In this document: piece by piece, positions 30,924-56,651 of the stretch
Position numbering within the stretch: the stretch's first letter is position 1
Layout of the letters: every line of letters starts with the position of its first letter
NCBI RefSeq assembly: GCF_900496995.4
Contig: NC_044018.1
Span: 29,678,047 to 29,742,046 of the forward strand
Length of the DNA stretch: 64,000 bases
DNA from: Aquila chrysaetos chrysaetos
Lineage: Eukaryota; Chordata; Aves; Accipitriformes; Accipitridae
Reading direction: 5' to 3'
Translations under genes and position numbers: made by a program
The notes under the pieces: generated by a model
What the model was told of the DNA's origin: nothing
Databases searched by the model: none
The model's input: the letters and a program-made list of their open reading frames with translations, nothing else

Positions 30924-32293
30924 TTATAACCTGGTGATATCCTCCGTGCGCGGGTCCTGCGCGGCGGCGGAGGGCAGCTCCTCGCCCGCGGCCGTGTTCG
31001 CCGGGGCGGCGGGGGCGGTGGAGGCGCTGGCAACCGCTGCCGTTGCTGCCCGTACTTTGGTGTTAGGCAGCCTGTGGTCTTTTTTCCATTTCATCCTCCT
31101 GTTCTGAAACCAGATTTTGATCTGTCGCTCGGAGAGGCAAAGGGAGTGGGCGATCTCGATGCGTCGCCGCCGGGTCAGGTACCTGTTATAGTGAAACTCC
31201 TTCTCCAGCTCCAAAACCTGCTGCCTGGTGTAGGCTGTCCTGGATCTCTTGGGTTCGCCTCCATTGTAATTGGGATTCACTGGAAAGGAGGGGAAGGAAA
31301 ACAAAACAAACAAAACAAAACAAAAAAAAAAAAAAAAAAAGAAAGGAAAGGAGAAAAAAAAACAACAAAACAAAACAAAAAAGAACACAAAAAAAAAAAA
31401 CACACAAGGAAAATCAGCGTGGATGGAGAGAGGGTCGGGAGAGGCGACTGGAGGAGCCGGGGGGGGGGGGGGGAAAGTAATAGGCTAAATAGGTAATAAA
31501 GAACTTTGGGCAGCTCAAGAGTTTCTATTCTAATAGGAAGGGGTTTCCCTGGCTCAAAAGACTGAATTATTTATGCACCCCTTACAAAGCTTTCGGAGTT
31601 TCACACATACATAACAGAACGAGCCACATGGCTAAGGCTGCCCACAGTAGCTCGGCTATAAAATTTATGGTGGGTGTAATTACCCATTCGGAGTCGTAAA
31701 TCCAGTTCAATTGTGCTAACCCAAAGACTCTCATGGAAGGGAAGGAAATAAAAAAAAAAAGAGAGAGAGAGAGAGAGAGGCGAGAGGGAGCGAGCATGGT
31801 GTGAAAATAAGAGCGGAGAGACAGAAGAGGAAAATAAAAGTTGCATACCAGTACTGACGTGGATTTTTTTCATCCAGGGATAGACTATGGGCTGTTTGGA
31901 AGCTGTGCTGTTGGGATGGTCGGGGTTTGGCTGGTTGCAGGCTGGAGGGGCTGGGGAAGGAGTAGTGGAGGAGGTGGATAGAGCAGCCTGCTCGCAGAGC
32001 TGCTGTGCTTTCTCTGAGAGGTGTTGGCCTCCTGGAGTTTGCCCGTGTCCCCTTTGGAGCGCGGCCGGGTTGCCGGGAGCTTGGAGACCCCCGCAGCTGA
32101 AGGGGCGGTCGGGGAAGGAGGGTCGTGGCACTGGGTACAGCTCCTGATGGTGATGCTGGTAGCTGGACTCCCTTGTCCGGCTATAATATTCCGGACTGTG
32201 GTCTGGGATGTAATTATTTTGCGAATATTCCTCGCATGGAGGAAATTTCGGATCGATGTAGTTAGAGTCCATCAAATAAGAGCTCATGATCAT
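30924..32293 (-). CDS. HOXC4: HOXC4 homeodomain transcription factor, two exons
   Basis: Antp-class Hox group-4 transcription factor that binds DNA in the nucleus with PBX/MEIS partners to set axial identity. Coding exon 1 is 32293-31849 and exon 2 is 31279-30924. The donor GTATGC follows 31849, the acceptor TTTCCAG precedes 31279, and the phase-1 junction falls in Val149. The product is 266 aa (human HOXC4 is 264). The N-terminus [19 protein letters not shown] and the HHHQELYP segment are HOXC4-specific and separate it from HOXA4, HOXB4 and HOXD4. The hexapeptide YPWMKK is at 138-143. The homeodomain is about 158-217, with helix 3 [14 protein letters not shown] complete, and the tail ends EDITRL as in other HOXC4 proteins. 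The tail between the homeodomain and this end is alanine-rich and diverged. The first ATG (32291-32293) matches the family start; a second in-frame ATG at 32287 has a better context (A at -3) and may also be used. The reading frame is intact. Confidence 0.97.
31664..31701 (-). promoter_or_regulatory. HOXC4 intronic Hox/CDX-type motif cluster
   Basis: Within the HOXC4 intron, 147-184 bp past the splice donor, plus-strand TTTATGG (31664-31670), the palindromic homeodomain core TAATTA (31677-31682) and GTCGTAAAT (31693-31701) sit together. TTTATGG and GTCGTAAA are typical CDX and posterior Hox (groups 9-13) sites. The introns of HOXC5 and HOXC6 have the same pair in a similar place. This resembles the intronic homeodomain-site clusters (HB1 type) known from other Hox genes. 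Function is inferred. Confidence 0.5.
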
Positions 32294-34135: not shown

Positions 34136-34215
34136 CGCCCATATATTCCCCTAGAGACGAATTTGTGACTGGGAGACGCTCACACAAATTCGAGTCTACA
34201 GGGTACATATAGGCG
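34136..34215 (-). ncRNA. MIR10C: mir-10 family microRNA hairpin (HOXC-cluster copy, mir-10c type)
   Basis: The minus strand encodes a hairpin with both arms of mir-10. The 5p mature product is at 34205-34183: it starts TACCCTGTAGA with the full seed and ends CGAATTTGTG. It differs from miR-10a and miR-10b only at positions 12-13 (CT here). The 3p product at 34165-34144 starts CAAATTCG, ends CTAGGGGAATA and differs from miR-10a-3p at one base. The core helix CGAATTTGTG/CACAAATTCG is perfect, the internal loop at positions 12-13 is 2x2, the terminal loop is about 17 nt, and the base is closed by CGCC/GGCG. It lies 1.84 kb upstream of HOXC4 on the same strand, the position of mir-10a beside HOXB4 and mir-10b beside HOXD4. 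miR-10 represses Hox and other targets. A HOXC copy is known in fish and amphibians but absent from mammals; the symbol is my orthology inference. Confidence 0.95.
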
Positions 34216-36214: not shown

Positions 36215-36568
36215 GTTTAATTGATTTTTTTCTTAAATCTGTTGTCAGTAAAAGTAATGAATCGGCCTAAAACGATTTTAATAAGCAAAGCCTGTCACCC
36301 AAAGTCCTAGCCTTCACATTTTTCTTTTGAGCCTCTTTCGTCTCAAAGAAACTAATAATGTAAATATTTATCCCTTCATTTTAACGTATTAAAGATGAAT
36401 CCCTCTTGTTTGCGAACGAACTGAAAAAATAAAATAAAATATGCAAACCACTTTCTCCATCTCTCCCTCCCCCCCCTTCTCACCCCACCCAGGAATTCAA
36501 TTTTCTTCAAATCTCGTTGAAAGTGGCTTTTTAAAAAGTGGGCGCATTTTAATATTGGTTAGACAGCG

Positions 36569-36585
36569 TGACCTGAATTTCACCT
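36569..36585 (-). promoter_or_regulatory. DR5-type retinoic acid response element
   Basis: The minus strand reads AGGTGA AATTC AGGTCA: two direct half sites fitting RGKTSA with a 5-bp spacer, the standard RAR/RXR DR5 arrangement. A further AGGTCA half site lies at about 36608-36613 and TTATTGATGG, one base off a PBX-HOX site, shortly after. The element is 4.3 kb upstream of HOXC4 and 2.4 kb upstream of the mir-10 hairpin. DR5 elements near group-4 Hox genes are established for HOXB4 and HOXD4. Activity here is inferred. Confidence 0.55.
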
Positions 36586-36744
36586 CAACTGTTTGACTTG
36601 ATCCAATAGGTCACTGCCAAGGAGTTATTGATGGGGGAACTCCATTGAAATTTCTCTCCTCACAAATGGCCTTTAGATCTTCTAGCGAGTTCAATAACTA
36701 GTTATAATGTAGAAGGGGAAAAATGAAGCCCAGAGGCAAACTAA

Positions 36745-50209: not shown

Positions 50210-51115
50210 CTAAAGAGCCTCTTTGCTTTTCAACTTGGAATCTTTCTTCCACTTCATCCTCCGGTTTTGAAACCAGATTTTGATTTGTCTCTCGTTCAGG
50301 CAGAGGTTGTTGGCGATCTCAATGCGCCTCCGCCGGGTCAGGTATCTGTTAAAATGAAATTCTTTCTCTAGTTCCAGAGTTTGGTAGCGGGTGTAGCTGG
50401 TTCGGGAGCGTTTACCATCCGTTTCTGGGGGGGGAAAAAAATAAAAATAAAAAAAAAAAAAAAGAGGGAAGACACCGCATGAAAAGCCAAAGCAATTCTG
50501 GATGGATTTTAAATTTTTTTATTAATTTTTTTCTTTTAATGATAAAACCCGGTTACAAATTTAGAATATACAGAAGTTTGCTGGGGCTGTGGGCACGCAG
50601 GGAGTGAAGTGGCCTGAAATCCTTCACTCCCCAACACCTTCGGCCCCCCAAGTCCCCCCCTTCCTTTCTAAAGCCCAGATCAAACGCATGTAGATGAGCC
50701 AGAAGTGAACCTGTTTCCTCTCGGACAATAAGGAAGTGTACAAAGGAGGGAAATATCTTTTCTTGGGGAGCTTGTCTCTTTTTCTCCCCCCCCCTTCAGC
50801 CCTGGGAAGGTGGAGGGGGAAAATCTCTCCACGCGTTCCCTCCACCTTCGCTTCTGGTGTCTTTTTTTTTCCAAGCTCACCCTCAAAGAACATGTGTATT
50901 TCAAGTTATTTTTAACCCCCCCTTCCCAAAAAAATGGAATATTGCCTTTTATACACGTTTTGTTTCTATGATCCAATTATGCTGTCATAAATTTGGGCGT
51001 ATATAGCCTCTAAGCCTTTTAGTGGACAGTTTTACGAGCAATTGATGCCTTAGTCGTAAAATTTACGACCTCAGGTTTTTTATTATTTGCCCCGTATGGC
51101 CTATAAAAACCCAAG

Positions 51116-51153
<38 letters not shown>

Positions 51154-51649
51154 AAATCCTGTGAAACAAAAATCAAGAAGTGAAAGTTTTACCATGGCTC
51201 ATGTGTAGTTTGGTCATCCAGGGGTAAATTTGTGGAGGTTGTTGCTGCTGCAGTTGTGGTCCTCCTTGTTGTGCTGTTTGCACGGGCTCAGCTTTGATTT
51301 CACCCGAGCTCTTAGATCTCTCCTCCAGCGTCGTGTTAGCACTCTTCTGACTGTAAATCCCGGGATTTAGGGATGCTTGATCGTCTCTGGCTAAAGGATG
51401 CCCTGAAGAACCCATGACCGTGCAGGAAGGTCGCTCGGGGTTAGCTCGGGGGGTCGCAGACATGTCCAAGCCGCTCAGGGAGTTGGTAGCCCCGGAGGAG
51501 GGGAGGGTGATGCTTAGATCCAAGCCACTGTAGCGGTACCTGGGTGACTGAACCTCAGGCACACTTCCATAATTTCCATAACTTTGCATGGCATAGGCAG
51601 GAACAGGGGGACTTTGCTTATAGAACGAATTGGCGACGTAAGAACTCAT
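50210..51649 (-). CDS. HOXC5: HOXC5 homeodomain transcription factor, two exons
   Basis: Hox group-5 nuclear transcription factor. Coding exon 1 is 51649-51193 (donor GTAAAA) and exon 2 is 50424-50210 (acceptor CCCCAG), with a phase-1 junction in Glu153. The product is 223 aa (human HOXC5 is 222). The start [14 protein letters not shown] is the HOX5 N-terminus and has a GCC-ATG-A context. GLDLSIT and [10 protein letters not shown] are HOXC5 blocks, followed by [14 protein letters not shown] glutamine-rich stretch precedes [12 protein letters not shown] (YPWM at 142-145). The homeodomain is about 156-215 with [14 protein letters not shown] intact, and the tail ends KSKEAL. The reading frame is clean. 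The intron (about 770 bp) contains a poly-A run, a homeodomain motif cluster and no mir-615 hairpin. It lies 3.5 kb downstream of HOXC6 in the same orientation. Confidence 0.97.
50984..51069 (-). promoter_or_regulatory. HOXC5 intronic posterior-Hox/CDX site cluster with a perfect inverted repeat
   Basis: In the HOXC5 intron, 120-210 bp past the donor, lie GTCATAAA (50984-50991), TTTTACGAG (51030-51038) and a perfect inverted repeat GTCGTAAA-A-TTTACGAC (51053-51069). GTCGTAAA/TTTACGAC is the preferred site of posterior Hox proteins (groups 9-13). Four such sites in 86 bp form the densest group in the window. Binding and function are inferred. Confidence 0.5.

Positions 51650-54334: not shown

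Positions 54335-56651
<2,317 letters not shown>

What the first reader, a model, noticed from the sequence alone, without database searches (positions are those of the whole stretch)
34136..34215. A mir-10 gene retained in an amniote HOXC cluster
The hairpin has the full mir-10 seed, a 3p arm identical to miR-10a-3p except for one base, and the canonical position 1.8 kb upstream of a group-4 Hox gene. Mammals keep mir-10 only in HOXB and HOXD. The mature 5p carries CT at positions 12-13, unlike both miR-10a and miR-10b, which opens a 2x2 internal loop while seed and 3' half are unchanged. That variant could mark a sauropsid HOXC lineage. HOXC sequences of this GC-rich type are poorly assembled in birds, so the locus may be unannotated.
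Basis: partly seen in the sequence, partly recalled or inferred. Interest (0 to 1): 0.85.

Follow-up and report, generated by a model that had tools for sequence, protein, structure and literature searches.

The report
Bird HOXC microRNA mir-10c
This is a genuine microRNA gene of the mir-10 family in the HOXC gene cluster of a bird, almost certainly the golden eagle, but the same microRNA is already named and sequenced in chicken as miR-10c, so it is ordinary.

Summary
Window 34138-34212 (minus strand) is a true mir-10 hairpin: Rfam RF00104, 60.7 bits against a threshold of 47.5, E 9.4e-13; fold -37.9 kcal/mol, z -7.15. It lies 1.85 kb upstream of HOXC4, between HOXC4 and HOXC5. A genome search lists the CT form at one place only. 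The first 22 bases of the mature strand equal the chicken miRNA gga-mir-10c-5p, measured by small-RNA sequencing (PMC9876980). The gene is also in print for reptiles, placed between HoxC4 and HoxC5 in a rock lizard (PMC9498476). The CT change opens a 2x2 loop, but mir-99a folds with one at the same place, and predicted pairing to Hox sites barely changes against miR-10a. It most likely works as mir-10a and mir-10b do: cut from a HOXC4 primary transcript and repressing group 1-4 Hox mRNAs. One lead is left: a 90-bp upstream block, shared with HOXD, that holds a DR5 retinoic-acid-receptor-like site.

The parts
34138..34212 (-). mir-10c precursor hairpin
   Evidence: Rfam RF00104 60.7 bits, E 9.4e-13; fold z -7.15
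34183..34205 (-). mature miR-10c-5p, 23 nt, C12 T13
   Evidence: first 22 nt identical to gga-mir-10c-5p in PMC9876980
34144..34165 (-). 3p arm, one base different from the mir-10a 3p of the same genome
31853..32293 (-). HOXC4 exon 1 coding part (start codon to near the splice site; end approximate)
   Evidence: open frame; positions; start extended by two codons from the frame
30924..31280 (-). HOXC4 exon 2 with homeodomain (start approximate)
   Evidence: Pfam Homeodomain E 7.7e-24
50210..51649 (-). HOXC5 (coding exons and intron; ends approximate)
55127..56651 (-). HOXC6 (coding exons and intron; ends approximate)
36545..36633 (-). non-coding block shared with the HOXD4 upstream region, with a DR5 RARE-like site at 36569-36585; candidate regulatory element
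   Evidence: blastn 78% over 90 columns, E 2.2e-8; pattern match; alignment

Best explanation
A functional, orthologous mir-10c gene of the avian HOXC cluster. Inferred mechanism: RNA polymerase II makes a long primary transcript that starts in the HOXC5-HOXC4 spacer and runs into HOXC4. Drosha and Dicer cut the hairpin. miR-10c-5p then loads into Argonaute with the standard mir-10 seed and dampens group 1-4 Hox mRNAs, partly redundantly with miR-10a and miR-10b. Shown here: hairpin, position, family membership, one listed place in the genome, and identity with a sequenced chicken miRNA. Inferred from paralogues: transcription, processing and targets.
For: Rfam match and fold. Position upstream of HOXC4, like mir-10a 1.3 kb upstream of HOXB4 in the same genome. 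One listed place. Arms conserved against loop. First 22 nt identical to gga-mir-10c-5p in small-RNA data of chicken embryo fibroblasts; both gga-miR-10c arms listed in hen jejunum. mir-10c between HoxC4 and HoxC5 in a rock lizard. [quoted passage not shown] In zebrafish, miR-10 represses HoxB1a and HoxB3a (PMC2148072). In this genome 8-mer seed sites lie downstream of the HOXA3 and HOXB3 homeoboxes and 7-mer-m8 sites downstream of HOXB1 and HOXB4.
Against: No small-RNA reads from this species. The passages read of the chicken papers do not say where gga-mir-10c lies, so its HOXC origin is inferred. The seed-site excess is weak: of 420 permuted seeds (the real one included) 29 have as many 8-mers, 40 as many 7-mer-m8 and 115 as many 7-mer-A1 sites. 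11 of 15 Hox genes scanned, HOXC4, C5 and C6 among them, have no 7-mer-m8 or 8-mer site within 2.5 kb; one of those 11, HOXD10, has a 7-mer-A1 site. By eye on the flanks printed (motifs recalled), mir-10c lacks the basal UG and the downstream CNNC that mir-10a of this genome has at about the expected places.
Confidence: 0.95

Rival explanations
1. A decaying relic: a mir-10 copy that still folds but is no longer processed or needed in this species.
For: The 5p arm carries two changes and the stem a larger internal loop than mir-10a. It has the lowest Rfam score of the four mir-10-family hairpins found over threshold in this genome (60.7 against 72.7-77.7 bits). By eye, it lacks two Drosha-helper motifs that mir-10a has (flanks).
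Against: The mature form is identical to the expressed chicken one, a divergence I recall as roughly 90 million years. The arms are far more conserved than the loop, and the fold is strong.
Confidence: 0.03
2. A functionally distinct miR-10 whose CT change redirects targets or strand choice.
For: Positions 12-13 lie next to the 3' supplementary region (general knowledge), and the change alters duplex symmetry. At the HOXB4 site miR-10c pairs 1.7 kcal/mol more weakly than miR-10b.
Against: The seed is unchanged. Predicted duplex energy at the four Hox sites differs from miR-10a by 0 to 0.8 kcal/mol. mir-99a in the same genome also folds with a 2x2 loop there.
Confidence: 0.07

Closest known systems
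chicken gga-miR-10c-5p / -3p
   Same: 5p identical over the 22 printed bases
   Different: precursor, 3p arm and genomic position could not be compared here
reptile mir-10c (rock lizard; by that paper's reading of miRBase also anole, alligator, king cobra, painted turtle)
   Same: family; in the rock lizard also the place between HoxC4 and HoxC5 (PMC9498476)
   Different: mature sequences not seen here
mir-10a (HOXB4) and mir-10b (HOXD4)
   Same: seed, hairpin architecture, place upstream of a group-4 Hox gene
   Different: positions 12-13 are TC in mir-10a and AC in mir-10b (one search prints the three chicken forms); other clusters
zebrafish mir-10b-2 at hoxc4a
   Same: same cluster position (PMC3185001)
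   Different: mature form identical to mir-10b-1 of hoxd4a according to that paper

Membership tests
mir-10 (Rfam RF00104) | score at or above the curated threshold of the covariance model | tested here: met
   60.7 against 47.5 bits, positions 1-74 of 74
mir-10 (Rfam RF00104) | stable hairpin | tested here: met
   -37.9 kcal/mol, z -7.15
mir-10 (Rfam RF00104) | seed ACCCUGU and conserved 3p arm | tested here: met
mir-10c, HOXC orthologue | between HOXC4 and HOXC5, same strand | tested here: met
   the cluster names rest on recalled diagnostic protein sequences
mir-10c, HOXC orthologue | mature sequence of the bird orthologue | tested here: met
   equals gga-mir-10c-5p, 22 of 22 bases
mir-10c, HOXC orthologue | both arms sequenced as small RNA in this species | not testable with these tools
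   no reads available

The most novel reading that the evidence does not exclude
A 90-bp element 2.4 kb upstream of mir-10c has been kept in the HOXC and HOXD clusters since the vertebrate genome duplications and holds a DR5 retinoic-acid response element in both. HOXB has a DR5 site at a similar distance upstream of mir-10a. It would be an ancestral retinoid switch that drives mir-10 together with the group-4 Hox gene, HOXC included.
Probability: 0.35. Interest if true: 0.4.

Novelty: already known. Interest (0 to 1): 0.15.

Why it matters
It shows that birds keep a third Hox-cluster mir-10, which mammals are reported to lack (PMC9498476). It also speaks against that paper's statement that chicken lacks mir-10c. 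A well-assembled bird HOXC cluster lets the gene be placed next to HOXC4 in a bird and not only in reptiles. The shared upstream block gives a small, testable hypothesis on retinoid control.

Tried and rejected
Antisense mir-10: the plus strand scores 34.5 bits, under the threshold of 47.5, so no antisense miRNA is claimed. Other Rfam matches in the window: 27 further rows at E up to 1, each under its family's threshold; judged chance or low-complexity. mir-615 in the HOXC5 intron: not among the rows (that Rfam holds a mir-615 family is recalled). HOXC3/HOXC1: the genome search lists no homeobox match on C15 below HOXC4; 150 of 164 candidates were scored. mir-10b: the family search did not list it and the fetched region gave no match; not all of the DNA is readable in the copy served, so its presence cannot be judged. 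'Mir-10-P1c' as a search term gave 0 papers. A 2-mismatch hit on C4 was taken as chance and not followed.

Statements about what is in print rest on searches of open PMC papers only (of the 29 papers, 20 were listed). miRBase and MirGeneDB could not be consulted directly. Every paper cited was seen in passages only, or in the listing where so stated.

Full report
What is there. The minus strand at 34212-34138 matches the Rfam mir-10 family over its whole model, 60.7 bits against a curated threshold of 47.5, E 9.4e-13 for the 64-kb window; it is the only match of the window that reaches a family's threshold, 4227 families searched. The 80-nt stretch folds to -37.9 kcal/mol, z -7.15, with 0 of 200 shuffles as stable. 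Mature 5p lies at 34205-34183 and the 3p arm at 34165-34144.

Where it lies. Open frames, homeodomain matches and positions show HOXC4 (start about 32293, homeodomain exon 31280-30924), HOXC5 (51649-50210) and HOXC6 (56651-55127), on the minus strand. Cluster names rest on recalled diagnostic protein sequences. A genome-wide search with the HOXC4 protein gives 83 rows; among them are four Hox-like groups, on C3, C6, C8 and C15, read as HOXA, HOXD, HOXB and HOXC. The hairpin is 1.85 kb upstream of HOXC4.

Whose genome. The genome has 1,233,704,830 bases in 144 contigs. C3, C6, C7, C8 and C15 measure 79.38, 54.40, 47.78, 46.93 and 30.98 Mb. Table 2 of the golden eagle assembly paper lists chromosomes 3, 6, 7, 8 and 15 as 79.38, 54.40, 47.78, 46.94 and 30.98 Mb (PMC8499043, passages read); that paper counts 145 scaffolds. 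The window is therefore almost certainly golden eagle chromosome 15.

Family in this genome. The Rfam search finds four loci over the threshold: one on C7, two on C8 and the window on C15 (its four further rows are the same places on the other strand, under threshold). Reading their letters with recalled mature sequences: C7 is mir-99a, C8:42.7 Mb is mir-100, and C8:2.7 Mb is mir-10a, 1.3 kb upstream of HOXB4. A pattern search for the mature form with positions 12-13 free and up to 2 mismatches lists three places: mir-10a, the window, and a 2-mismatch hit on C4. mir-10b was not found, but not all of the DNA is readable in the copy served, so nothing follows from that.

Constraint and structure. 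Between mir-10a and mir-10c of this genome the two arms differ at 3 of 45 bases and the loop at 10 of 17 (Fisher p 3.5e-5). The CT change does open a 2x2 internal loop where mir-10a has a 1x1 mismatch, but mir-99a folds with a 2x2 loop at the same place. Such a loop is not foreign to the family. Against my reading: by eye on the flanks, and with motifs recalled, mir-10c lacks the basal UG and the downstream CNNC that mir-10a of this genome has at about the expected places.

Already known. A chicken embryo fibroblast small-RNA study prints gga-mir-10c-5p as taccctgtagactcgaatttgt, differentially expressed in two contrasts (PMC9876980, passages read). This equals the first 22 bases of the window's mature strand. 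Seven papers in the library name gga-miR-10c; of these I read passages of PMC9876980 and PMC8241840, and the other five were seen only in the listing. PMC9330022 discusses chicken miR-10c-5p under its short name (passages). A duck paper names a pigeon form, cli-miR-10c-5p, with a substitution at position 11 (PMC7460075, one passage). A goose paper lists aca-miR-10c-3p (PMC4967221, passages). A rock lizard paper places mir-10c between HoxC4 and HoxC5, lists it from miRBase for anole, alligator, king cobra and painted turtle, and says it is absent in chicken and mammals (PMC9498476, passages). The chicken part of that statement is contradicted by the papers above. [quoted passage not shown] the passage does not name the clusters.

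How it works. [quoted passage not shown] In zebrafish, miR-10 represses HoxB1a and HoxB3a, and the miR-10 paralogue at hoxb4a is induced by retinoic acid (PMC2148072, passages). I infer the same for HOXC4 and mir-10c. I scanned 2.5 kb from the end of the homeobox match, or about there, of 15 Hox genes for mir-10 seed sites. 8-mers lie at HOXA3 and HOXB3, 7-mer-m8 sites at HOXB1 and HOXB4, a 7-mer-A1 site at HOXD10, and none at the other ten. Of 420 permuted seeds, the real one included, 29 have as many 8-mers (mean 0.39), 40 as many 7-mer-m8 sites (mean 1.52) and 115 as many 7-mer-A1 sites (mean 1.82), so the excess is weak. These genes were chosen as anterior Hox genes and known mir-10 targets (recalled), not at random, and one of the 15 stretches holds 174 unreadable bases. 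[quoted passage not shown]

A lead outside the finding. Comparing the HOXC4-HOXC5 spacer with the HOXD4 upstream region gives a 90-column block, 78% identical, E 2.2e-8, at 36633-36545, 2.4 kb upstream of mir-10c. It holds AGGTGAaattcAGGTCA, a DR5 pattern of retinoic-acid response elements, at 36569-36585, and the HOXD copy holds AGGTGAaacgcAGGTCA. The HOXD region has a second match to the pattern nearby. The HOXB region gave, apart from the hairpin, only three matches of 24-32 bp, none at the block, but a DR5 match, GGGTGAaccgcGGGTCA, lies 2.6 kb upstream of mir-10a. Cautions: the pattern was looked for after seeing the block. The window holds 4 matches against 0.6 expected, and the other three lie outside this spacer. 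In HOXB 11 of 200 shuffles had at least one match. Functional RAREs are cited near Hoxd4, Hoxb4, Hoxa4, Hoxb5, Hoxa1 and Hoxb1, and two, DE and B4U, flank a transcript between Hoxb4 and Hoxb5, so the HOXB site may be a known one. Hoxc4 is not in that list (PMC4510006, passages). One search for RARE, HOXC4, DR5, HOXD4 and mir-10 together found 3 papers with at least four of the five terms; I read passages of two of them.

Verdict. Observation confirmed; the gene is an ordinary bird mir-10c, already named in chicken, in its expected place.

Noticed in passing
window 36545-36633 (-): Non-coding block shared with the HOXD4 upstream region, holding a DR5 retinoic-acid response element-like site in both copies.
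   Followed up: partly
L010 6009-6025 (-): DR5-like site 2.6 kb upstream of mir-10a in HOXB; may be one of the RAREs known between Hoxb4 and Hoxb5 in mouse.
   Followed up: partly
G000:C15 below 29709066: No homeobox match listed downstream of HOXC4, so HOXC3 and HOXC1 appear absent (150 of 164 candidates scored).
   Followed up: no
G000:C4:71996322-71996344: Two-mismatch match to the mir-10 mature pattern, probably chance.
   Followed up: no
window 34139-34213 (+): The antisense of the hairpin also resembles mir-10 (34.5 bits, under the threshold of 47.5), as expected of a near-palindromic hairpin.
   Followed up: no
paper PMC7460075 (duck): A duck miR-10c-5p variant is written with a substitution at position 11 relative to the pigeon form, next to the CT pair; the reason is unknown.
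   Followed up: no
window 30924-31280 (-): Pfam Auxin_canalis just passes its cut-off on the HOXC4 exon-2 frame (25.1 against 24.8 bits); judged a spurious match.
   Followed up: no
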